In this document: in pieces, positions 1 to 48,728 of the stretch | Layout: each line of letters begins with the position of its first letter | Position numbering within the stretch: position 1 is the stretch's first letter | Assembly: GCF_023115465.1 (NCBI RefSeq) | Contig: NZ_CP096034.1 | Span: forward strand, 868,001-932,000 | DNA length: 64,000 bases | Direction of reading: 5' to 3' | Source of the DNA: Gottfriedia acidiceleris | GTDB lineage: Bacteria; Bacillota; Bacilli; Bacillales; Bacillaceae_G | Program-made: the position numbers and the translations under genes | Notes under the pieces: model-generated | What the model saw: the letters and a program-made list of their open reading frames with translations, nothing else | Databases searched by the model: none | Told to the model about the DNA's origin: nothing

Positions 1-438
1 CGGTGAGATCGTGGCTTATAATTTTGAAAAACGTCCTGTATTTCCATTAGTAACAAAAATGTTAGATAAAGCTTTTAAACGCCTTAATGATGGTGACTCC
101 CCTATCCTACATTCAGATCAAGGATGGCATTACCAAATGAAAAAATATCAGCATCTACTCAAAGAAAACAAAATTATCCAAAGTATGTCCCGAAAAGGTA
201 ACTGTTTAGATAATGCAGTTATGGAAAACTTCTTTGGTTTATTAAAGTCTGAATTATTTTATCTTCAGGAATTTAAGAGTATCGAAGATTTCATTTTAGA
301 ATTAGAAAATTATATCCACTACTACAATCACAAACGAATTAAGACAAAATTAAAAGGATTGAGCCCTGTACAATACAGGGTCCAATCCTCACTAGTAGCA
401 TAATTAAAATATGTGTCTAACTTTTTGGGTCCAGTTCA
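1..438 (+). mobile_element. IS3-family insertion sequence, right-end fragment
   Basis: The first 438 bases match the last part of the complete element at 18059-19496 base for base as far as I can read. It ends with the same right terminal inverted repeat (gtgtctaac...ccagttca, about 413-438). The left part lies outside the window. Being identical to the second copy, it has probably transposed recently, or the two copies are kept identical by gene conversion. Confidence 0.93.
2..403 (+). CDS. IS3-family transposase OrfB, C-terminal part (cut by window start)
   Basis: This is the catalytic half of an IS3/IS150-type DDE transposase, which cuts and joins the element's ends. The reading frame is open from base 2 (ggt gag atc) to the taa at 401-403. 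Visible motifs are HSDQGWHY, carrying the second catalytic Asp, and NCLDNAVMENFFG, carrying the catalytic Glu. The first Asp (in WATDVTEF in the full copy) is upstream of the window. The protein matches the last 133 residues of the copy ending at 19461, so it is presumably functional if the missing part is intact. Confidence 0.93.
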   Translation, partial: GEIVAYNFEKRPVFPLVTKMLDKAFKRLNDGDSPILHSDQGWHYQMKKYQHLLKENKIIQSMSRKGNCLDNAVMENFFGLLKSELFYLQEFKSIEDFILELENYIHYYNHKRIKTKLKGLSPVQYRVQSSLVA

Positions 439-457
439 AAATTGTAGTCTTTTGTTT

Positions 458-496
458 TTCTTATGCAACTAATGCATTGCGTTAGTTCGTTAAGAA
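458..496. repeat. Array inverted repeat, copy a (short hairpin)
   Basis: Arms ttcttatgcaactaa and ttagttcgttaagaa flank a short loop. This is the first member of the repeat family that punctuates 458-5715. The stop codon of the gene on its right (minus strand, 482-484) lies inside the repeat. Confidence 0.7.
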
Positions 497-724
497 GAAG
501 AAATCTACGAAACTCAACAAAACTACAAAAAAATGAATATAGCTTCTTTTTTTGTTTAATCGAAATTCTCTTATACCTGACTTCAAGAACATTAATCCTA
601 AGAAAAGGAACATATAATGTAGCGCTAATCCCATCTTATTAGTTTTATAACCGTATATACCTAAAACTACGACGATTAAAGGTAATATGCTTATTCCTAA
701 AATTGCTCCTAAAGATTTTAACAA
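482..724 (-). CDS. Small membrane protein, DUF3953-like
   Basis: An 80-residue protein of about three hydrophobic segments: ILGISILPLIVVVLGIYG near the N-terminus, LHYMFLFLGLMFLKSGI in the middle, and YIHFFVVLLSFVDFFF at the end, split by a basic stretch (EFRLNKKRS). The order of a first helix, a LFLGLMFL helix and a KK-rich turn resembles the DUF3953 family of Bacillus; this is recognition by eye. I chose the TTG at 724-722 as start because AGGTGG (738-733) lies eight bases upstream, while the GTG codons further up overlap that site. Its TAA stop is inside inverted repeat copy a, as expected of a cassette that ends at its repeat. Function unknown. Confidence 0.6.
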   Translation of the reverse strand: MLKSLGAILGISILPLIVVVLGIYGYKTNKMGLALHYMFLFLGLMFLKSGIREFRLNKKRSYIHFFVVLLSFVDFFFLTN

Positions 725-762
725 TATATTCACCACCTATTAAATACAAACCACTATCCAAA

Positions 763-864
763 CTTATTGATTTAGGATTAATGCATGCGTTAGCCATCCA
801 TGAATCCTCAGATTCCCAACAGTGAATGGAAGTTTATATCGTACTCCCATGGTAGTTGAATAAG
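763..864. repeat. Array inverted repeat, copy b
   Basis: About 102 bp with cttatt/aataag ends. It contains the palindrome taatgcatgcgttag and an inner ccatgaatcctc...gaatgg hairpin. The inner part is clearly related to copy j at 5228-5323 (shared taatgcatgcgttagcca and ccatgaatcctc), which defines a second subfamily of the repeat. Confidence 0.65.
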
Positions 865-897
865 CAATTATTTTTTTCTTGGGCGATTTGTTTTTCT

Positions 898-1150
898 CTA
901 TACAAATTGTATAAACAAAGGTACAGTCGCAACTACAAAACATAATACTCCGATAATCTTGAATTTTTTATCTCCATATATAAGATTCATTACTCCTAAT
1001 AAAATAAATGTACTCGTTTCAAGTAAATTTGAAATAAGTTCATTTAGGTTTGTGGGATTGTTAATATAATCAATTTTAAAAATTGTCAAAGCAATTATGT
1101 CTAATATAAATAAATAAATAAATAAATGGTTTAGGTATTCTTTTTTCCAT
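898..1150 (-). pseudogene. Small two/three-helix membrane protein gene, out of frame at an ATTT tetranucleotide repeat
   Basis: The minus strand has AAGGGG and then an ATG at 1150-1148 opening MEKRIPKPF. The frame then runs through five perfect ATTT units (forward AAAT, 1108-1127) and stops after 24 codons. The next frame is open from within the repeat to 898 and encodes a plausible membrane protein (ETSTFILLGVMNLIYG, KIIGVLCFVVATVPLFI). Removing one four-base unit joins the two frames and creates an extra N-terminal helix (FIYLFILDIIALTIF). The in-frame internal TTG at 1089 has no ribosome binding site. This is either a frameshifted gene or a phase-variable one in its OFF state; function unknown. 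Confidence 0.65.
1108..1127. repeat. Tetranucleotide microsatellite, five perfect AAAT units (ATTT on the coding strand)
   Basis: Five uninterrupted units lie eight codons inside a minus-strand gene. A change of one unit shifts the reading frame, and loss of one unit restores a full-length membrane protein. Confidence 0.9.
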
Positions 1151-1253
1151 TTTGATTTACCCCTTCGATGTTAATTGCAGTTAATTATACATCGTAAATC
1201 TACTACTGTAACTTGGGGGAATTCAGACTTTTCCACATAATTTTCGGATAATC

Positions 1254-1345
1254 CTTATTGTACTAAACAGCCAGTTTGTTGAATAAAAAAATCGACTAAA
1301 CAGCCAATCTTGTTGTTCAACTATTGCATGCTTTAGTTGAATAAG
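1254..1345. repeat. Array inverted repeat, copy c
   Basis: About 92 bp with near-complementary ends cttattgtactaaa and tttagttgaataag. The interior carries cagcca, a run of A and then atcgactaaacagccaatcttgttg. It lies just downstream of the minus-strand gene 1370-1555. Confidence 0.7.
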
Positions 1346-1369
1346 AACTATGTACTTTTACATAAATTC

Positions 1370-1555
1370 CTATTTCTTAGTAGAAGTATTTTTTCTTAAT
1401 ATACAATAAAGAAAGAGTGCGACTCCTCCTCCAAAAGCGCCAGCAAAATGAGAACTTCTTAAAGTATCATTCATAAGATACGCTGTCACTAAAAAAGCTA
1501 ATACAAACGAAATACTCAATAAAAAGTTTGTTAAAATGTATTTTCTTGAAAGCAT
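1370..1555 (-). CDS. Small two-helix membrane protein of unknown function
   Basis: A 61-residue protein with two predicted membrane helices: ILTNFLLSISFVLAFLVTAY (about 7-26) and FAGAFGGGVALFLYCIL (about 37-53, glycine-rich). Both ends are basic (MLSRK and the tail RKNTSTKK). The ATG at 1555 has GGAG about seven bases upstream, so the start is well supported. The gene is followed within 25 bp by inverted repeat copy c and preceded by copy d, the one-gene-per-repeat arrangement of this region. I recognise no family. Confidence 0.65.
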   Translation of the reverse strand: MLSRKYILTNFLLSISFVLAFLVTAYLMNDTLRSSHFAGAFGGGVALFLYCILRKNTSTKK

Positions 1556-1614
1556 GATTTACTCCAATCTTTTTTATTCTCTCTAAATAAATTCCATATA
1601 TTTACAGTAAATCC

Positions 1615-1705
1615 TTCTTCAACTAAACTGCCATTTAGCTCAATAAAAAAAATCGACTTTTCAGCCGATCGTATTGTTCAACATACGCATCAGTTAGTTG
1701 AACAG
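1615..1705. repeat. Array inverted repeat, copy d
   Basis: About 90 bp: ttcttcaactaaactgcca at one end, cagttagttgaacag at the other, A-rich centre with tcgacttttcagccgatcg. It touches the stop codon (1707-1709) of the NUDIX gene on its right. Confidence 0.75.
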
Positions 1706-1706
1706 A

Positions 1707-2171
1707 TTATTTTATAATTGGATATCTATTTTCTTCTGCCCAATCCATTATAAATGGTTTTTGACGGGGATTTAAGTTAGCAGGAAGGTCTGTCTTTCTA
1801 AAAAATCGATGTTCTCTGCTTTCAATACCTTTTTGTTTTAACTCCCCTGTAAAATGTTTAGATTTGAAAATTATTTGAACACTGAAAGTCTGATCTCCAT
1901 TAGGATATTGAACAAAACATTTTTCTCCTGAATAAATACCAAACAACTCTAAATCAGTTATCGTTAGCCCTGTTTCTTCAAAAGATTCCCTTTTCGCTGT
2001 CTCTTCAAAGGTTTCTCCAATTTCCATAATTCCACCTGGAATACACCAATTATCTTCGTCAGTTCGGTGTTGTAATAATATTTGTTCTTTATCTTCAATA
2101 ATAATCCCGCAACCAACAGTTAATAAGGTTTTGTTACCAATATATTTTCTCATTTCTGCTATGTAATTCAT
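1707..2171 (-). CDS. NUDIX hydrolase (first of two paralogues)
   Basis: A 154-residue NUDIX protein, a Mg2+-dependent pyrophosphohydrolase acting on nucleoside diphosphate-linked substrates. The Nudix box is complete at about residues 47-69, beginning GIMEIGETFEETAKRE and continuing SFEETGL, with the metal-binding REx2EE glutamates present. The second residue after RE is Ser rather than the usual aliphatic. The ATG at 2171 is preferred over one five codons upstream because AAGGAG sits six bases before it, and because the paralogue at 3162-3617 starts at the equivalent place (M-Y-I---RK). The substrate cannot be told. The gene is flanked by inverted repeats d and e. Confidence 0.88.
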   Translation of the reverse strand: MNYIAEMRKYIGNKTLLTVGCGIIIEDKEQILLQHRTDEDNWCIPGGIMEIGETFEETAKRESFEETGLTITDLELFGIYSGEKCFVQYPNGDQTFSVQIIFKSKHFTGELKQKGIESREHRFFRKTDLPANLNPRQKPFIMDWAEENRYPIIK

Positions 2172-2265
2172 CGACTTCTCCTTCATTAAAAACCATCTTT
2201 ATTCAAATAATTTTAACAATAATTCACTATGAATTTCTAAAGCAAATTTTCCTATTTATTCCAGT

Positions 2266-2360
2266 TTCTTATTCAACTATCCTGCCATTTAGTTAAACAA
2301 AAAAGAGCTTCCGAAGCAACTCACGTTGTACAACTAAAGCATCAATTAGTTGAATAAGAA
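2266..2360. repeat. Array inverted repeat, copy e (best terminal arms)
   Basis: 95 bp with perfect 14-bp terminal inverted repeats, ttcttattcaacta at 2266 and tagttgaataagaa ending at 2360. Inside are cctgccatttagtt, a central gagcttccgaagc hairpin and caactaaagcatcaattagttg. This copy shows the family structure most clearly: an outer arm pair enclosing smaller hairpins. Confidence 0.85.
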
Positions 2361-2443
2361 AACATTTATTTTCAAATTTTTTTCTAGATTTTCCAATCAT
2401 ACATCTCTAATATGATTCTCTATTTTTTGTTGGATATTAGGAT

Positions 2444-2995
2444 TTACTTATTTAATCTACTATGAATTACAGAATGTAGCTCGCTCAATCTTTCCTGATA
2501 CCTAGTTGCTTCTTCAATCTTAGAGTATCTCTCATCATTAAGTGCCCTTTCAATTTCATATAATTTTTCAAGTTCTGGTCTCAGTGACTTTATAGTCTCA
2601 ATATCATTTTTTTGGACTAACTCTTGTAAATATGAACTATATTCTCCAATATCAACAAACAAATTATCTATATCTACTTGTAGTTCGATAACGACTAATT
2701 TATTAAAAGTTGCCTTATCCTTACTTGTGATTCTGGGAATAAAGTTTGGAACAGTAGATAAATAGGAATCAATAAATCCTTTAGCATAATATAAATCTTT
2801 TTGAGTATTAGCTTGCGACAATAATTTTGTAATATTACCAAATTGATATAGTGATACTGAGTAATTATGTCGGTAAATTTCATCTAGTGCAACATTAGGA
2901 CTTGGTTTGTCTATTTTACTAACTTTATCTGATAAACAGCCCGTCATAGTTAAAAACATTGAACAGGAGATTAACACCAACGAAAATTTTTTCAC
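2444..2995 (-). CDS. Lipoprotein of unknown function
   Basis: A 183-residue protein with a lipoprotein signal peptide: basic KK start, hydrophobic LVLISCSMFLTM, then lipobox MTGC (Cys about residue 19), so it should be anchored on the outer face of the membrane. The mature part is polar and almost wholly helical, with many Glu, Lys, Leu and Tyr residues, which suggests a helical bundle. The GTG start at 2995 is chosen because GGAGGG (about 3001-3007) lies five bases upstream. The longer reading frame starting at 3028 would place charged residues ahead of the signal. No family recognised. It lies in the repeat-punctuated array between copies e and f. Confidence 0.75.
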   Translation of the reverse strand: MKKFSLVLISCSMFLTMTGCLSDKVSKIDKPSPNVALDEIYRHNYSVSLYQFGNITKLLSQANTQKDLYYAKGFIDSYLSTVPNFIPRITSKDKATFNKLVVIELQVDIDNLFVDIGEYSSYLQELVQKNDIETIKSLRPELEKLYEIERALNDERYSKIEEATRYQERLSELHSVIHSRLNK

Positions 2996-3097
2996 ATAAT
3001 CCCTCCAAAAAAAGAATAAATTTAACATACATTTTCAATATCTTTCTAGCATTTAAATTCTACATTTTTGTAATTTTTTCCTTTTCTATTGGAATAT

Positions 3098-3173
3098 CCT
3101 ATAAGTTAGCAAAAAAATAGACTGCTAAAGCAGCCTTCTTGTTGTACAACTAACGCATCAGTTAGTTGAATAA
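3098..3173. repeat. Array inverted repeat, copy f
   Basis: The right part is typical: caactaacgcatcagttagttgaataa. The left part is decayed. The NUDIX gene on its right ends inside it: its last codons, for leucine, phenylalanine and asparagine, and its TAA stop are read from the repeat arm. Confidence 0.7.
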
Positions 3174-3617
3174 AGCATCCTTAAATGATATTATGATTGG
3201 AAGTTCAGGTGGACTAATTTCAGATGGTAATTCATTAAAACTAAAAAAGCGTAAATCTTGCACTTCGCTTTCTTCTTTTTCGAATACACCTGAGTATTCA
3301 GTACATATATAAGTAGCAATTACATTATATACTTCGTCTCCGTGAGGATATTTATAATAAAATTCTTTTCCAGAAAAAATGTTAAAAAACTCAAGCTTTA
3401 ATGCTGTTAAACCAGTCTCTTCCTTCAATTCTCTTTTAGCAACTTCCTCTAAATTTTCTCCTAATTCTAATGAACCACCAGGTAATCCCCAAGTATTATT
3501 GTCTTTCCTTAATTGTAATAGCACTCTTTTTTGTGAATCTAATAGTATAACATTTGCACCAGCCATTAATAGTGGACGACTACCTACAACTTTTCTTAAA
3601 TCCATAATATATCCCAT
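3162..3617 (-). CDS. NUDIX hydrolase (second of two paralogues)
   Basis: A 151-residue NUDIX pyrophosphohydrolase with a textbook Nudix box at about residues 48-70: GSLELGENLEEVAKREL followed by KEETGL. It shares with the copy at 1707-2171 the same length, the N-terminal Y-I-M/A-(D/E)-(L/M)-R-K motif, and the FF/LF-(N/G)-I-(F/Y)-SG segment after the box, so the two are paralogues within one array. The ATG at 3617 is chosen because GGGGAG stands seven bases upstream. Its final residues and stop codon come from inverted repeat copy f. Substrate unknown. Confidence 0.88.
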   Translation of the reverse strand: MGYIMDLRKVVGSRPLLMAGANVILLDSQKRVLLQLRKDNNTWGLPGGSLELGENLEEVAKRELKEETGLTALKLEFFNIFSGKEFYYKYPHGDEVYNVIATYICTEYSGVFEKEESEVQDLRFFSFNELPSEISPPELPIIISFKDALFN

Positions 3618-3676
3618 TGTTTTTCTCCCCATAAATTATGTTAATGTTTAAAATAACTGTAACAAATGATTACATC

Positions 3677-3754
3677 TTATTCCACTAATCTGCCATTTAG
3701 CTACACAAAAAACGATTCTTCGTTATTGAAAAATCGCATGGGTTAGTTAAATTA
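3677..3754. repeat. Array inverted repeat, copy g
   Basis: cttattccactaatctgccatttag at the left, A-run, cgattcttcgttattg, then cgcatgggttagttaaat. Downstream of the 25-codon gene at 3781-3855 on the minus strand. Confidence 0.65.
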
Positions 3755-3780
3755 TTTCTTAGAAGTGAGAAATGGAATGG

Positions 3781-3855
3781 TTAGATACTTAAATTACCTT
3801 TTAAAATTGCACCCAACGCTAAAATACCACCGCTAGTTGAAATCAAAAAAGCCAT
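3781..3855 (-). CDS. Tiny hydrophobic peptide gene (24 residues)
   Basis: A 25-codon reading frame encodes a 24-residue peptide beginning MAFLISTSGGIL and ending ALGAILKGNLSI. One glycine-containing hydrophobic segment could span or lie on a membrane. The ATG at 3855 is preceded by GGAGGG at about seven bases, one of the best ribosome binding sites in this region, which is the main reason to believe it. It is flanked on both sides by inverted repeats (g and h), so it forms its own one-gene unit. Single-helix toxin, bacteriocin-like peptide or regulatory membrane peptide are all possible; nothing in the sequence decides. Confidence 0.55.
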   Translation of the reverse strand: MAFLISTSGGILALGAILKGNLSI

Positions 3856-3879
3856 TTAAAATTCCCTCCAAAAAGTTAA

Positions 3880-3932
3880 AAAAACGATCCTTCGTTATTA
3901 AATTAATCGCACTGCGTTAGTTAGTTAATTCA
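3880..3932. repeat. Array inverted repeat, copy h (partial)
   Basis: Only the right half of the element remains: aaaacgatccttcgttatta, then cgcactgcgttagttagtt. Its aaacgat-cttcgttatt segment is shared with copy g, so g and h are close relatives on either side of the tiny peptide gene. Confidence 0.6.
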
Positions 3933-3935
3933 ATC

Positions 3936-4181
3936 CTATTTTATTAGCTTAGTAAAACGGTTTTGTATAACAAATGCGATAAAAACTGATAGCATTGTAA
4001 CAATGAATAGAGATACAGAAGAACTTTCCACAAAAATAACCTCATGTGGCAACTTTGATATATTACTCCATTGATCAGCTAAATCAGGCTGATAAAATAC
4101 CGTTAAAAGCATACCTGAGAATACATTTAAAGCAACAAATAATAGGATAAAACTTATTGAAAACAAAAGAATTTTTTTCAT
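3936..4181 (-). CDS. Small two-helix membrane protein of unknown function
   Basis: An 81-residue protein. Helix 1 is ILLFSISFILLFVALNVFSG (about 4-23) and helix 2 is VSLFIVTMLSVFIAFVI (about 56-72). Between them is a polar loop of about 30 residues (YQPDLADQWSNISKLPHEV) that would be exposed on one membrane face, and the tail is basic (NRFTKLIK). The ATG at 4181 has GGAG eight bases upstream. It is one more single gene bounded by array repeats (h downstream, i upstream). I do not recognise the family with confidence. Confidence 0.65.
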   Translation of the reverse strand: MKKILLFSISFILLFVALNVFSGMLLTVFYQPDLADQWSNISKLPHEVIFVESSSVSLFIVTMLSVFIAFVIQNRFTKLIK

Positions 4182-4280
4182 TTTTATTCTCCTTTAGTTA
4201 CTCAATTTATATTATTCACTAAGAAGATTTTCCTAAGATGATACTACTAACATTAACATATTTTTCCATTTTTAACTACA

Positions 4281-4370
4281 AGTTTGCAAATACCTGCCAT
4301 TTACTCTAATAAAAAAGAACAGCTTTTGGCTCCTCTTCATCATTAACTTATGGAGTGCGTTAGTTCAAAC
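4281..4370. repeat. Array inverted repeat, copy i
   Basis: Contains the conserved core tacctgccattta, an A-rich centre with cagcttttggctcc, then ggagtgcgttagttcaaac. It lies between the divergently oriented genes 3936-4181 and 4493-5125. Confidence 0.6.
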
Positions 4371-4492
4371 CAAATCAAAAGTATTTTCTTTTCATTTGGA
4401 AATTACCACAAAATAGAAAATAATAGTTTTAAAATCATATATGATACTGTAATATCAATAAGGGCACCTTAAAAAAGAAAGGGTGCATAAAA

Positions 4493-5125
4493 GTGTATGG
4501 TATTATTCATTTCGAACTATTTTTAATAACAGGAATTTTGCTTAATTTAATTCCAGGTGCAGATACGATGTATATCGTAGGTCGAAGTATTTCTCAAGGG
4601 AGAAAAGCTGGAGTATTTTCCGTTTTAGGAATCATTTCAGGCTCATTAATTCATACGCTTTTGGTTGCGTTTGGATTATCCCTTATTCTATTAAAATCTG
4701 TTTTCTTATTTAATACGATTAAGATTATAGGTGTTATCTATTTGGTATACTTAGGGATACGTATGCTACTAGATAAATCAAATGCTGCGTTTCGAGCAGC
4801 CGAAGTTGACAAATTAAATATCCCTAAAGTATATGTGCAAGGTATTTTAACGAGCTTAACAAATCCCAAAGTATCATTATTTTTTCTTTCGTTCCTTCCA
4901 CAATTCATTGATACAAAGGCTTCTGGTCCGATTCCTTTTCTGATCTTAGGACTGACTTTTACAACAACTGGGTTGTTATGGTGTTTATTTGTTGCTTATT
5001 TTTCTTCTTATGTAACAAAGAAACTAAGAGGAAACCAGAAAATTGGAATGGTTTTAAACAAAGTAACTGGAATAATTTTTATTGGTTTGGGTATTAAGCT
5101 CCTTCAAATAAAAGCTCCTAACTAA
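4493..5125 (+). CDS. LysE/RhtB-family amino-acid exporter
   Basis: A 210-residue integral membrane protein of the LysE/RhtB superfamily, which exports amino acids or small metabolites using the proton gradient. The signature NLIPGADTMYIVGRSIS at about residues 18-34 corresponds to the family's N-x-x-P-G-P-D motif, with Ala in place of the second Pro. About six hydrophobic helices follow, and TNPKVSLFFLSFLPQF is the second family motif. The start is GTG at 4493 with a GAAAGGG site upstream. It is the only plus-strand gene in the repeat array and has its own terminator at 5187. The exported substrate is unknown. Confidence 0.85.
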   Translation: MYGIIHFELFLITGILLNLIPGADTMYIVGRSISQGRKAGVFSVLGIISGSLIHTLLVAFGLSLILLKSVFLFNTIKIIGVIYLVYLGIRMLLDKSNAAFRAAEVDKLNIPKVYVQGILTSLTNPKVSLFFLSFLPQFIDTKASGPIPFLILGLTFTTTGLLWCLFVAYFSSYVTKKLRGNQKIGMVLNKVTGIIFIGLGIKLLQIKAPN

Positions 5126-5186
5126 ACTTATTAAAAACCTGATGCCCCCTAAAATATAAAAGTTTATGTGAATGAAAATATAAAGA

Positions 5187-5222
5187 ATTCCTTCAGAAAC
5201 AATATCTGAAGGAATTTTTTAT
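5187..5222 (+). terminator. Rho-independent terminator after the LysE-family gene
   Basis: Stem attccttcag/ctgaaggaat with loop aaacaatat, followed by a T-run. Confidence 0.85.
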
Positions 5223-5227
5223 ATTTG

Positions 5228-5323
5228 TTATGCAAACTAATGCATGCGTTAGCCAACCATGAATCCTCTGTTTCACAAAAGTGAATGGTAGCTTTTATTC
5301 TAATCTAATAGTATTTGCATAAG
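5228..5323. repeat. Array inverted repeat, copy j
   Basis: About 96 bp with terminal arms ttatgcaaa and tttgcataa enclosing the palindrome ctaatgcatgcgttag and an accat...atggt hairpin, giving a cloverleaf-like fold. Same subfamily as copy b. Confidence 0.75.
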
Positions 5324-5325
5324 AA

Positions 5326-5631
5326 TTAAAAATTTATCGTTTTTTTCGGTAAAACCTTTGGGTCTTTTATTAGAGATGCAACGTTCTTCCCTTTGTTAAA
5401 CCTTACATTATTAAGCCAATAAATAAACGCACCTTCATCATAACTCAGTCCATATTTCTCCTTGTTGTCCTCATCAACACCAAAAGATACCCAGAAAGGA
5501 TGGTCATTATTTCTATCATATAACCATCTAAAAAAATCTTGTTGCAGTTGACGGATATTTCTTCCTACTTTTGCAGGACATCTAATATAAACTGTATCAT
5601 CTTCGTATTCAAATTCAATTTTTACAAACAA
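5326..5631 (-). CDS. Hypothetical soluble protein, 101 residues
   Basis: A 101-residue soluble protein with no signal or membrane segment. It is rich in aromatic and acidic residues, with segments FFRWLYDRNNDHPFWV and EGAFIYWLNNVRFNKGKN and a basic end (KVLPKKTINF). The start appears to be TTG at 5631, since GGGGGAAG lies upstream at a usable distance and no ATG is near. Its stop codon lies three bases after inverted repeat copy j, again the pattern of a gene plus downstream repeat. No recognised family. Confidence 0.6.
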   Translation of the reverse strand: MFVKIEFEYEDDTVYIRCPAKVGRNIRQLQQDFFRWLYDRNNDHPFWVSFGVDEDNKEKYGLSYDEGAFIYWLNNVRFNKGKNVASLIKDPKVLPKKTINF

Positions 5632-5675
5632 CTTTAACTTCCCCCATCCGATTGATCTATCAAGTAATTATAGCA

Positions 5676-5715
5676 TTTCTTATTCAACTAACCTGCCATT
5701 TAGTTGTATAAGAAA
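5676..5715. repeat. Array inverted repeat, copy k (solo hairpin)
   Basis: A compact version: 16-base arm tttcttattcaactaa, loop cctgcca, arm tttagttgtataagaaa. It is the last recognisable member of the array. Confidence 0.8.
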
Positions 5716-5966
5716 ATCAACAATCTGCTTTAACAGAGACAAAAATAAAGAAATTATATGTATTTAATGGAGGTGTAGGAGGACTAAAGACCCAGTAGGA
5801 ACGTGAAGGCCTAGCTCATGCTAAAGCGAGCATACTTAGTTGAAATCAACAAGATATTACATATTTAATTAAACATTCTAATCAAAATTTTAGATAGAAT
5901 AGTTACTTTTGTAGTAATATGTGCTTTTTTCAATTGCATATATATTAGTAAAGGGGTGATAAAAAA
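5716..5966. other. Intergenic stretch with a degenerate GC-richer repeat
   Basis: No credible gene. Around 5780-5832 a block including gacccagtaggaacgtgaag and catgctaaagcgagc looks like a decayed copy of a hairpin repeat common between Bacillus genes (compare about 37955-38005). The rest is AT-rich upstream sequence of the DoxX gene. Confidence 0.4.
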
Positions 5967-8547: not shown

Positions 8548-8564
8548 CTTTTTAACATTTGAAT

Positions 8565-8866
8565 AAAAGCAATGAAGAGGAAAAGTAGAATAATGTTATT
8601 TTTTACAGAGAGCTTCGGTAGCTGAAAAGAAGCAAGAATACTTATTTGAACAATGGCCTCGGAGCTTCGTACTGAACGTATACTTTCTATTAGTAGGCTA
8701 CGACAAGAGTTGGCACTTGTTACCAAAGTCACAGTATATAAGCATTTTTATGCTTTTTGTACTTGCTAAGACAAATGTATGCAAATACTTTGTGAACTAA
8801 GGTGGTACCACGTGGATATTAAACCTCGTCCTTATCTTTTTATAGATAGGGGCGAGGTTTTTTGCA
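8565..8866 (+). ncRNA. T-box leader, methionine-specific
   Basis: An untranslated leader that senses uncharged tRNA and controls termination ahead of metG. Recognisable parts are the stem I opening agagagcttcgg, a specifier-loop ATG (Met) at about 8653-8655 in gaacaatggcc, the conserved T-box aaggtggtaccacg (about 8799-8812) and a terminator hairpin aacctcgtcc...ggggcgaggtttttt (about 8822-8864). Uncharged tRNA-Met pairing with the specifier and the NCCA bulge would favour readthrough. Confidence 0.92.
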
Positions 8867-8889: not shown

Positions 8890-10527
8890 ATGGACATTTT
8901 TATTGGAGGAGCTTGGCCTTATGCAAATGGTTCATTACATTTGGGGCATATTGCAGCTTTACTGCCAGGTGATATTCTAGCTCGATATTTTCGTTTGAAA
9001 AAAGCGAATGTATTATACGTTTCAGGAAGTGACTGTAATGGTACACCTATTGCTATTAAAGCAAAACAAGAAAATGTAACTTATAAAGAAATTGCAGATC
9101 GTTACCACCTTGAATTCGAGGATAACTTTAAGAAATTAGGATTTACCTATGATTTTTATACAAGGACAGACGCAAAACATCATCATAATACTGTACAAGA
9201 AATTTTCTTAACTTTATTACAAAATGGGTTAATTTATAAAAAAGAAATTGAACAATGCTATTGTGAAGAATTTGAACAATTCTTACCAGATCGTTATGTA
9301 GAAGGAAATTGTCCAAATTGTGGTCAACATGCGCGTGGAGATCAGTGTGATTATTGCTCTGCTATTTTAGATCCTTTAGAATTATTAAATAAAACTTGTA
9401 AGCTATGTGGAAATCCTCCATCCGTAAAAAACACAGAGCACTTTTATTTTTCATTAAGTAAGTTACAAGATAAGCTTAATGAATATCTTGAATTTGCTAA
9501 AATGAGTGGATGCTGGCGTTCGAATGCTATCCAATTAACAGAACGATATTTAAATGAAGGGCTTCATGACCGAGCAGTATCAAGGGATTTGCCAAATGGA
9601 GTAAGCGTACCAGTAAAAGGGTATGAAAAGAAGAAAATTTATGTGTGGATCGAAGCAGTGTCTGGTTATTATTCGGCAAGTAAACAATGGGCACTTAGCA
9701 CTAATCAAGATGACATTAGCTTTTGGAAAAAAGAAACAACATCATATTATATTCATGGTAAAGACAATATACCGTTCCATTCAATTATTTGGCCAGCTAT
9801 TTTAATTGGTTTAAAAAAAGATGCTCTTCCAACTCATATTGTTTCAAATGAATATTTGACTCTTGAGAAGAAAAAACTGTCCACTAGTAAAAACTGGGCA
9901 GTATGGGTACCATATCTAATCGAAAAATATCATCCAGATTCAATCCGATATTTTTTAACAATAAATGCTCCAGAAAATAGAGACACTGATTTTTCTTGGA
10001 GGGAATTTATTTATAGTCATAATAGTGAACTATTAGGCGCATATGGGAACTTTGTAAACCGCACATTAAAGTTTCTTGAAAAGTACTATAATGGTGAAGT
10101 CCCAAATGGGGAAATAGAACAATCATTTAGATTCGAAATTAATGGGCTTTATAAGTCAGTTGGTTCACAGATTGAATCGGCTAATTTCAAAAAGGCCATA
10201 GAGGAAGTGTTTGAATTTATCCGAACTGCAAATAAATATTTTGATGAAGCTGCGCCTTGGAAACAAGTTAAGGAGAATTTTATCGGGTGCCATAACACGA
10301 TGGTGAGTTGTATATATGCTATTGCCAATCTGGCGCAAATCTTACATCCAATCTTACCTTTTTCGAGTAATGAAATAAAAGAAATGCTAAATCTACCAAA
10401 ATTTGAATGGAAGGAAATTTCTCCAGTTTTAGTAAAAATTAACGAGGTAAAGCCTCTTTTTGACAGAATTCATGTAGGTAGAATAGAGGAAGAATTAGAA
10501 CAGTTAAATAACCAATCTAAAAAGTAA
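8890..10527 (+). CDS. metG: Methionyl-tRNA synthetase, second type
   Basis: A 545-residue class I synthetase charging tRNA-Met. The HIGH signature is HLGH at about 17-20. Two zinc-knuckle pairs follow (CPNCGQH and CDYC at about 141-157, then CKLCGNPP). The KMSKS loop appears as KLSTS at about 326-330, followed by the anticodon-binding helical domain. There is no C-terminal EMAP/Trbp111 domain. Four knuckle cysteines, KLSTS and T-box control mark it as the alternative MetRS that some Bacillus and Streptococcus carry beside the housekeeping enzyme; this type is less sensitive to synthetic MetRS inhibitors. ATG at 8890 with AGGAGG upstream; the longer frame would begin inside the leader. Confidence 0.93.
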
Positions 10528-10966
10528 AAGATAAAAGATCCAAAAATAAGAGTTGCGCCTGTTGAAGTGAAATATTCATCAGGATCGATGATTACAGATG
10601 TTTTATGCCATCCATCAATATCAGGTGTTGCTTCACCAGTTGTACGAGGGGCAAATTTAATATAAAGCATGAGTAATAGAGCAAATAGACCAACAAATGG
10701 TGCAGTAGATGAAAATGGCATTTAAAATAAAGGGCAATTAAAAATGATATAAAATATAAAGCTATAATTGATATACTTAATTTTAAGAATTGTTTAAGCC
10801 AGTAATTGCGTCGATTGATTGGTTGGTCGCGTAATACTTCTTTCATTTTCTGTGCATCCTTGTATCGGAAATATAATCCGACTGGCCATGCGATTAAGAA
10901 GCAGATTAATGTAAAGGACAAGCATAGTATAAGTTTTCCTCCGAAAGCTGTTATAAATAATGACAT
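10470..10966 (-). pseudogene. Four-helix membrane protein gene with a frameshift
   Basis: ATG at 10966 with GGAGG upstream opens MSLFITAFGGKLILCLSF, with helices at about 9-30 and 62-82. At about 10725 the frame must change for the protein to continue as MPFSSTAPFVGLFALLLML and end at 10470, overlapping the metG 3' end tail to tail. Adding one A to the AAA run at the junction would make a single protein of about 165 residues whose C-terminal part also ends in a membrane helix. The second half has no ribosome binding site of its own. Family not recognised; disruption or sequencing error. Confidence 0.6.
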
Positions 10967-11168
10967 ATTTTCCTCCAAAATTTTAATGATAATTACTATT
11001 TTATCAAACTTTCAAATTAAAAATATTGGGAAAATATAAAATCATATAGAAAATGTAATCGTTTTATTTAACTTGTTTAATAATGTTTATTATAAAATGA
11101 TTGAATATAAGCACTATTCTAGCAATCTCATAACATTATATGTACCTAAAAACTAAATGAGGTGAAAA

Positions 11169-46889: not shown

Positions 46890-48451
<1,562 letters not shown>

Positions 48452-48477
48452 TATTGAATAAACAGTGAACGAAAAAG

Positions 48478-48728
48478 CAGTAGTTTGATTGGTAGTAGTT
48501 AAAGAGAGCGAGTGGTTGGTGAAAACTCGTCTACACAATCAAATGAATTACATTTCGGGAGTTTTCTTTTCGTAGTTAGTTGATCTAATGAAGGGAAGAA
48601 CGTAAATCTACGTTACAGATTCGAGTGATAAGGAATTTTTCTTATATAAGCATTTATTTCTTATAACTAGGGTGGTAACGCGATCGAGGTCGTCCCTATA
48701 TTTTATAGGGGGCCTCGATTTTTTATTG
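48478..48728 (+). ncRNA. Second tyrosine-specific T-box leader
   Basis: It aligns with the tyrS leader: agagagcgagtggttggtga, specifier TAC at 48549-48551 in the same atgaattacat context, T-box actagggtggtaacgcg at about 48667-48683, and terminator atcgaggtcgtcc...gggcctcgat plus T-run at about 48684-48726. It lies between tyrS and a GNAT-nhaC pair, so these probably respond to uncharged tRNA-Tyr. Confidence 0.93.

What the first reader, a model, noticed from the sequence alone, without database searches (positions are those of the whole stretch)
439..5715. Cassette-like array: small genes, mostly on one strand, each followed by a related inverted-repeat element
At least eleven related 40-100 bp elements (458, 763, 1254, 1615, 2266, 3098, 3677, 3880, 4281, 5228, 5676) alternate with single small genes, nearly all on the minus strand. 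The best copy has perfect 14-bp arms (ttcttattcaacta...tagttgaataagaa) with smaller hairpins inside, and two subfamilies exist. Gene content (membrane peptides, two NUDIX hydrolases, a lipoprotein, orphans) is what mobile gene cassettes carry. No integrase is in the window. The family could be like the dispersed bcr repeats known in the B. cereus group, or attC-like recombination sites of an undescribed cassette system.
Basis: partly seen in the sequence, partly recalled or inferred. Interest (0 to 1): 0.8.

Follow-up and report, generated by a model that had tools for sequence, protein, structure and literature searches.

The report
Integron-like gene-cassette arrays in Bacillales
A soil bacterium related to Bacillus carries strings of small spare genes bordered by short recombination-site-like sequences, and its relatives keep beside such strings a dedicated DNA-joining enzyme; this looks like a gene-shuffling system of the integron type in bacteria thought to have almost none.

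Summary
The window genome (genus Gottfriedia, by its closest named relatives) has 41 strong copies, clustered; all 12 other genus genomes searched have them. Each full element is two core sites, A and B (inverted TTAGTTnnATAAG-type boxes around an 8-bp spacer), with an oriented terminator hairpin between. Cassettes recur in other genomes beside other neighbours, junctions falling mostly in or next to the cores. The likely enzyme is a clade of about 280-296 aa Xer-like tyrosine recombinases with intact active site, found beside arrays. About 80 of 397 genomes sampled from the order have a member; in 17 of 20 such loci from the wider order the same elements occur, 86 against 10 on the strand opposite to the integrase. 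It scores far below the IntI cut-off, so this is not filed as an integron. The window genome keeps only a broken remnant. The window array lies between 28-bp inverted repeats with an 8-bp direct repeat, so whole arrays probably also transpose. Function is inferred: no recombination was observed, the arms do not covary, and three array-bearing genomes showed no recombinase of this clade. I found no description in the open-licence papers searched.

The parts
1..432 (+). Right part of an IS3-family insertion that split the left terminator of the array (its left part lies outside the window)
   Evidence: rve and rve_2 domains in ORF 11-403; the two halves of the terminator hairpin lie on either side of it
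458..497 (-). Lone A core site at the downstream end of the array
   Evidence: profile hit, model 3-41, 23 bits
482..736 (-). Cassette gene, 84 aa, DUF3953-like
   Evidence: region 458-782 found at 97% in G010:C6
763..866 (-). Type-2 element
   Evidence: 779-864 has many 82-99% copies in the genus
898..1089 (-). Cassette gene, 63 aa, membrane-type peptide
   Evidence: region 880-1344 at 95% in G010:C29
1252..1347 (-). A-terminator-B element
   Evidence: E 4.5e-19 with R1
1370..1555 (-). Cassette gene, 61 aa
   Evidence: found in G003:C69 and G012:C27
1612..1706 (-). A-terminator-B element
   Evidence: E 1.5e-17
1707..2186 (-). Cassette gene, NUDIX hydrolase
   Evidence: Pfam NUDIX; copies in several genomes
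2266..2360 (-). A-terminator-B element with the best arms
   Evidence: E 1.3e-17
2444..2995 (-). Lipoprotein-like gene; the only larger gene of the array with no copy in the rows listed
   Evidence: no Pfam hit
3086..3174 (-). A-terminator-B element, B damaged
   Evidence: E 7.9e-6
3162..3617 (-). Cassette gene, NUDIX hydrolase
   Evidence: Pfam NUDIX; copies in ten or more genomes
3675..3752 (-). A-terminator-B element with short loop
   Evidence: E 0.0016 with R1
3878..3928 (-). Partial element, A plus terminator
3936..4181 (-). Cassette gene, 81 aa, membrane-type peptide
   Evidence: 3916-4295 at 93% in G012:C16
4278..4370 (-). A-terminator-B element, R' box of B lost
4493..5125 (+). Cassette gene, LysE-type translocator, inverted
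   Evidence: Pfam LysE; 95% copies in G006:C14 and G007:C5
5228..5330 (-). Type-2 element
5326..5631 (-). Cassette gene, 101 aa
   Evidence: copies in G007:C2, G004:C6 and G004:C1
5677..5714 (-). Lone B core site at the array start
   Evidence: 35 bits
5713..5740 (-). Right terminal inverted repeat
   Evidence: 24.7 bits, reversed control at most 9.0
5741..5748 (.). AAAAATAA, also present just outside the left repeat (target duplication)

Best explanation
The region is an array of gene cassettes built by site-specific recombination. Each full element is two separate recombinase core sites, A and B, each a pair of inverted half-sites of TTAGTTnnATAAG type around an asymmetric 8-bp spacer (A about CGCATGCN in Gottfriedia and CGGGTGCG in the wider order; B about ATGGCAGN and CGGGGCAG), with an oriented terminator between them. 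A dedicated Xer-like tyrosine recombinase, encoded on the strand opposite to the cassettes beside arrays of relatives, recombines A with A and B with B, so that a gene leaves with a terminator as a circle and enters at other A or B sites; the different spacers fix the orientation. Arrays also sit inside units with 28-bp terminal inverted repeats that seem to transpose and would seed new arrays. In the window genome the recombinase is only a broken remnant, so its arrays are probably fixed unless a recombinase comes from outside. Shown: anatomy, clustering, reassortment of cassettes, junction positions, linkage to and strand bias against the recombinase, its intact active site, terminal repeats and direct repeat. 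Inferred: that this recombinase catalyses the exchange, the A-with-A and B-with-B rule, the circles, and transposition of arrays.
For: Clustered elements in all 13 genus genomes. Terminator T-run on the gene strand in 194 of 226 elements, A-run in 1. 35 cassette families shared between arrays with no neighbour pair seen in two independent places (by eye). Change points: 14 of 21 in the A core for pairs sharing the upstream gene, 10 of 18 in the B core for pairs sharing the downstream gene. Recombinase beside arrays, divergent from a B in L205, L206, L209, L218. One clade, 34 sequences, 100/100; catalytic residues in 33 or 34 of 34. In 20 loci from other families: 90 half-sites against 1 reversed and 0 around XerC/XerD, elements in 17 of 20 loci with 1 reversed hit, 86 opposite against 10 same strand. 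Co-occurrence outside the genus 6 of 13 against 2 of 34, p 0.003.
Against: No recombination event or circle was observed. G007, G011 and G015 have elements but no clade member; drafts may miss one. Three of 20 order-wide loci lack elements, and in L284 they lie on the integrase's own strand. In L207 and L210 the profile finds B only on the 3' side of the integrase, and none near L208. Change points are spread: 6 of 21 lie before A, 3 of 18 in the terminator, 3 on the gene side. Several copies of the two NUDIX genes in other genomes end at the stop codon without an A site. A crude palindrome count around the integrases is only modestly raised, 308 against 190. The arms do not covary.
Confidence: 0.8

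Rival explanations
1. Cassettes move mainly by transposition of units with terminal inverted repeats (MIC- or MITE-like) plus homologous recombination between elements; A and B are relics and the recombinase is a passenger.
For: Terminal repeats with direct repeats bound whole arrays; 276 matches to the repeat in 13 genomes, none when reversed; change points are spread.
Against: The repeats bound arrays, while single cassettes reassort inside them at A and B. Elements are mostly too unlike each other for homologous recombination to be easy (alignment). The strand bias and recombinase linkage recur in loci of other families.
Confidence: 0.12
2. Host XerC and XerD move the cassettes, as in pdif modules.
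For: Arrays occur in genomes that have XerC and XerD but no clade member (G007, G011, G015).
Against: Both half-sites are one box with an 8-bp spacer, unlike dif (recalled: two different 11-bp boxes, 6-bp spacer). No sites lie around the XerC/XerD genes. Linkage is with the new clade.
Confidence: 0.03
3. These are integrons proper, or CALINs, with IntI and folded attC sites.
For: Same overall layout: integrase divergent from an attachment site and arrays of small genes. The closest NCBIfam model, NF040815 recomb_XerA_Arch (208.6 bits, cut-off 220), bears the words integron integrase in its description.
Against: 90 bits on the integron integrase model TIGR02249, cut-off 265. No arm covariation. 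Two core sites with different spacers per element. IntI is described as having an extra domain near the C-terminus (PMC9024848, passages).
Confidence: 0.03
4. The elements are dispersed terminator or bcr/REP-like repeats with no role in gene mobility.
For: Most contain a terminator hairpin; the type-2 elements are highly conserved and dispersed.
Against: Clustering with small accessory genes, reassortment at element borders, linkage to a recombinase in many families.
Confidence: 0.02

Closest known systems
Integrons (IntI, attI, attC), including chromosomal superintegrons and CALINs
   Same: Arrays of small diverse genes with recombination sites, a divergent tyrosine recombinase beside an attachment site, arrays without integrase in some genomes
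   Different: Recombinase is not IntI; two core sites with different spacers and a terminator per element; arms conserved as boxes without covariation; arrays inside inverted-repeat units; host order with almost no reported integrons
pdif (Xer) modules of Acinetobacter plasmids (recalled)
   Same: Gene modules bordered by tyrosine-recombinase core sites
   Different: pdif uses host XerC and XerD and dif-like sites; here a separate recombinase clade and other boxes
Mobile insertion cassettes (MIC) and MITEs of the Bacillus cereus group
   Same: Passenger genes between terminal inverted repeats with direct repeats and no transposase found inside
   Different: Here the inverted repeats bound a whole array whose genes reassort singly at A and B
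bcr repeats of the Bacillus cereus group
   Same: Dispersed elements of 100-400 bp in Bacillaceae, with recombination-like mobility proposed
   Different: bcr1 described as restricted to the B. cereus group and bcr mobility as tied to TTTAT; sequences not compared here

Membership tests
Integron (IntI) | integrase belongs to the IntI family | tested here: not met
   TIGR02249 90.2 bits, cut-off 265; NF011946 53.5 bits, cut-off 435
Integron (IntI) | IntI-specific extra domain near the C-terminus | tested here: inconclusive
   TIGR02249 and IntI4 (2a3v) match only partly; structure prediction too poor, pLDDT 60.8
Integron (IntI) | attC sites conserved as a folded stem | tested here: not met
   no pairing of arms covaries convincingly over 187 elements or 112 cassettes
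Integron (IntI) | integrase divergent from an attachment site at the array start | tested here: met
   L205, L206, L209, L218; B-type site in 15 of 38 upstream regions, 7 of them seeds of the profile, 0 of 172 control windows
Integron (IntI) | cassettes excised and inserted singly by the integrase | not testable with these tools
   only its traces: reassortment and junctions
Tyrosine recombinases | catalytic R, K, H, R, H, Y | tested here: met
   34, 34, 34, 33, 34, 33 of 34
XerC / XerD | falls in the XerC or XerD clade or over their cut-offs | tested here: not met
   separate clade, 100/100; below all cut-offs
MIC / MITE | terminal inverted repeats and direct repeats around passenger genes | tested here: met
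   28-bp repeats and AAAAATAA around the window array; 7-bp repeat in L143
MIC / MITE | a transposase elsewhere that acts on these repeats | tested here: inconclusive
   no transposase was identified between repeat pairs in the loci; only ORF positions were looked at
bcr repeats | sequence match to bcr1-bcr18 | not tested
   no bcr sequences were at hand

The most novel reading that the evidence does not exclude
Bacillales have their own, independently evolved class of integron: an Xer-derived integrase that works on two different duplex core sites per cassette, cassettes that bring an insulating terminator, and whole arrays that hop on transposon-like ends. It reaches superintegron size in Gottfriedia and was overlooked because integron searches look for IntI and attC.
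Probability: 0.72. Interest if true: 0.95.

Novelty: new variant of a known kind. Interest (0 to 1): 0.9.

Why it matters
Integrons are reported as almost absent from Firmicutes: one complete integron there in IntegronFinder 2 (PMC9024848, passages read). A widespread cassette system with its own integrase would explain how soil Bacillales gain and reorder small accessory genes, would give a second, independent case of cassette capture to compare with integrons, and supplies profiles that can find such arrays in other genomes. Whether cassette capture can work on duplex core sites without IntI becomes directly testable in a soil bacterium.

Tried and rejected
Rejected as the recombinase: the 189-194 aa tyrosine recombinase inside the 3143-3149 kb array (neighbours look phage-like, by eye); the 301-305 aa recombinase at 2364 kb (neighbours look like a type I restriction locus, by eye); the 332-340 aa protein at 2884 kb (similar-sized hits in all array genomes, but its first catalytic Arg is replaced); the phage-type integrases beside G003 and G015 arrays.

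Rejected: a conserved folded stem. Rejected: a general cassette promoter; extended -10 boxes follow B in 42 of 226 elements against 16 expected, but simple -10 boxes are not enriched, 164 against 173.

Led nowhere: the predicted structure of the integrase (five sequences, pLDDT 60.8, pTM 0.48) was not used for a fold search; phage records hold only distant homologues, 33-36%; the transposase for the terminal repeats was not identified.

Literature: passages were read in PMC9024848, PMC12690207 and PMC6542083; all else is search listings. None of the listed papers appeared to describe this system. Only open-licence papers were searched, so it may be in print elsewhere.
Full report
WHAT WAS CHECKED. 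Read along the gene strand, a full element is: box CTTATnnAACTAA, spacer CGCATGCN, box TTAGTTGAACAA (core A); a short GC hairpin with a T-run; box TTATTCAACTAA, spacer ATGGCAGN, box TTAGTTnnATAAG (core B). In the window the array starts with a lone B (5677-5714) and ends with a lone A (458-497). Two positions (763 and 5228) are a second subfamily.

GENOME-WIDE AND CLUSTERED. The window lies at 868001-932000 of a single 4.69 Mb contig. A covariance model of 23 elements finds 41 distinct places at E<=1e-3 (opposite-strand duplicates dropped by me); 34 have another within 5 kb, against 3.3 expected and 14 at most in 5000 random draws. In the arrays read in this genome (73 genes by a home-made ORF caller, two stretches left out), 26 of 29 full elements within 300 bp after a gene are on the gene's strand. 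In the genus arrays 194 of 226 elements have a run of five or more T between A and B on that strand, and 1 has such a run of A. Cargo is diverse: 74 array proteins give 41 Pfam families; of the 25 families shown, 23 match one protein, for example LysE, MatE, VanZ, HAD and SUKH, and two (NUDIX, DinB) match two.

THE GENUS. The 12 other genomes of the genus have 12 to 69 model hits each, 69 being the number of candidates scored; 26 of the 60 genomes searched have a hit. Named relatives of the recombinase point to Gottfriedia: contig G005:C12 has the length of a G. acidiceleris DSM 18954 scaffold, and G. solisilvae and G. endophytica are also hit. G002:C2 has the length of CP053689, 'Arthrobacter citreus NEB 577', and the integrase lies at the same coordinates, so that record is probably misnamed. 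Large arrays occur: 74 half-sites in G002:C1 752-806 kb.

CASSETTES REASSORT. Eight of the nine larger window genes are found in other genomes at other places, best matches 87-97% identical; the lipoprotein-like gene was not among the rows listed. Identity often ends in or next to A or B, but several copies of the two NUDIX genes end at the stop codon and show no A site. Over all fetched Gottfriedia arrays, 37 segment families are shared; two are the same stretch fetched twice, and one consists mainly of integrase-bearing segments. By eye, no two families are adjacent in two independent places. For pairs of elements that share the upstream gene, the change point lies in the A core in 14 of 21, before it in 6 and in L' in 1 (three further pairs are the same stretch fetched twice). 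For pairs sharing the downstream gene it lies in the B core in 10 of 18, in A in 2, in the terminator in 3 and on the gene side in 3 (two further pairs, identical throughout, were set aside). So both cores act as junctions, and gene and terminator modules can part. The arms do not covary in the pairings tested: no position stands out after allowing for the number tested, the best being z 2.2-2.3. They are conserved as boxes, as expected of protein-binding half-sites on duplex DNA.

THE RECOMBINASE. Tyrosine recombinases of the array-bearing genomes were listed and a choice of 20 neighbourhoods read. One family stands beside arrays. In L205 (G. acidiceleris) its open frame begins 42 bp from the first B of an array on the other strand; in L206 (the CP053689 plasmid), L209 (one stop) and L218 (frameshift) it is likewise divergent from a B. 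In L207 and L210 the profile finds a B only on its 3' side, with a degenerate B-like stretch upstream by eye; L208 has no site in reach. In L205 and L206 an A site follows its 3' end, so it lies antisense between A and B. The window genome has only a remnant at 2839632-2840000, 75% identical with two stops, inside its 2836-2843 kb array. The family forms one clade (34 sequences, 100/100) apart from XerC and XerD; the program warns of long branches at its join with other recombinases. Catalytic R, K, H, R, H, Y are kept in 34, 34, 34, 33, 34 and 33 of 34. It scores 90 bits on the integron integrase model, cut-off 265; the closest model, NF040815 (archaeal XerA, described as 'site-specific tyrosine recombinase/integron integrase'), gives 208.6 bits, cut-off 220.

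THE ORDER. In 397 genomes sampled from the order, 82 by my count of the rows shown have a match of 54% identity or more, fragments included; the list was cut. Other recombinases follow near 40%, and XerC/XerD near 32%. In 398 genomes of the phylum five pass E 1e-60: two of the same order at 62-68%, one of the same class at 48%, two at 41-42%. Plasmids of Sporosarcina psychrophila, Peribacillus simplex and Cytobacillus solani hold members at 61-64%. Twenty loci from other families were read. Half-site profiles trained on Gottfriedia give 90 sites above 9 bits in 18 of the 20, against 1 in reversed sequence and 0 in 86.7 kb around XerC/XerD genes of the genus and G015. Full-element hits appear in 17 of 20 loci with one reversed-control hit; the common form there is AACTAA-CGGGTGCG-TTAGTT, hairpin, T-run, AACTAA-CGGGGCAG-GTTAGTT. 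They lie opposite to the integrase 86 times against 10, five in a locus with two integrases being set aside. A B-type site reading away from the integrase lies within 260 bp upstream in 15 of 38 members, 7 of which had supplied seeds of the profile; 0 of the 38 reversed and 0 of 172 control windows. A cruder palindrome count is only modestly raised, 308 against 190, and not at all in some loci. Outside the genus, the recombinase is present in 6 of 13 genomes with element hits and 2 of 34 without, p 0.003.

ARRAYS ALSO SIT IN TRANSPOSON-LIKE UNITS. At the window's chromosomal site G010, G006 and G012 show no element, G005 has a 2.1-kb insert with other cassettes, and G007 a 2.9-kb insert with a degenerate B and the terminal repeat. 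A second site is filled in G011 and G002, with different cassettes, and empty in the other six of the eight relatives compared. The junctions show 28-bp terminal inverted repeats, about GGCTCTGTTAAAGTAGATTGTTGATTTT, with a terminator inside the left one, and a 7-bp direct repeat in G011. The pattern, with up to three mismatches, has 276 matches in 13 genomes and none when reversed; many lie in short MITE-like pairs and were not examined. For the window array the left repeat is at 866948-866975 and the right one at window 5713-5740, with AAAAATAA outside both. The transposase is unknown.

MECHANISM. The simplest reading is a cassette system in which the recombinase exchanges A with A and B with B, moving a gene with a terminator as a circle, B at the array start being the main entry site. 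Anatomy, reassortment, junctions, linkage, strand bias and an intact active site are shown; catalysis, circles and the pairing rule are inferred. Against it: no direct observation; G007, G011 and G015 have elements but no clade member; three of 20 loci lack elements; L284 has the opposite strand relation; change points are spread.

RELATION TO THE KNOWN. It works like an integron but fails two defining tests, the IntI family and a covarying attC stem, so it is not filed as an integron. IntegronFinder 2 reports one complete integron in Firmicutes (PMC9024848, passages). None of the papers listed appeared to describe this system; closed-access work was not searchable.

Noticed in passing
window 779-864 and 5238-5323: Type-2 elements, 84-86 bp, with many 82-99% identical copies in the genus genomes, better conserved than the A-terminator-B elements; their role is not explained.
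   Followed up: partly
window 1-432 and L040 about 9000-11000: IS3-family copy inserted in the terminator hairpin at the left end of the array.
   Followed up: yes
L037 (genome 2884510-2885091): 332-340 aa tyrosine-recombinase-like protein with the first catalytic Arg replaced, beside a SpoVK-like gene (by eye); similar hits in the other array genomes.
   Followed up: partly
L053 9742-15658: Phage-like genes with a small tyrosine recombinase and a serine recombinase next to or within an array (names by eye).
   Followed up: no
window 8563-8836, 46898-47128, 48456-48700: Three T-box leaders.
   Followed up: no
rows, e.g. G047:C23:29349-30152: A second group of 310-355 aa recombinases about 40% identical to the cassette integrase; not studied.
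   Followed up: no
L228 and L229 about 10930-10990, L231 about 10970, L060 14916: Conserved stretch like TTTGTGAAGGATTACACTTAAACTAA before a B site on the 3' side of the integrase and at an array start; perhaps a second kind of attachment site.
   Followed up: no
CP053689.1: Record named Arthrobacter citreus NEB 577 matches a genome of the window's genus; probably misnamed.
   Followed up: partly
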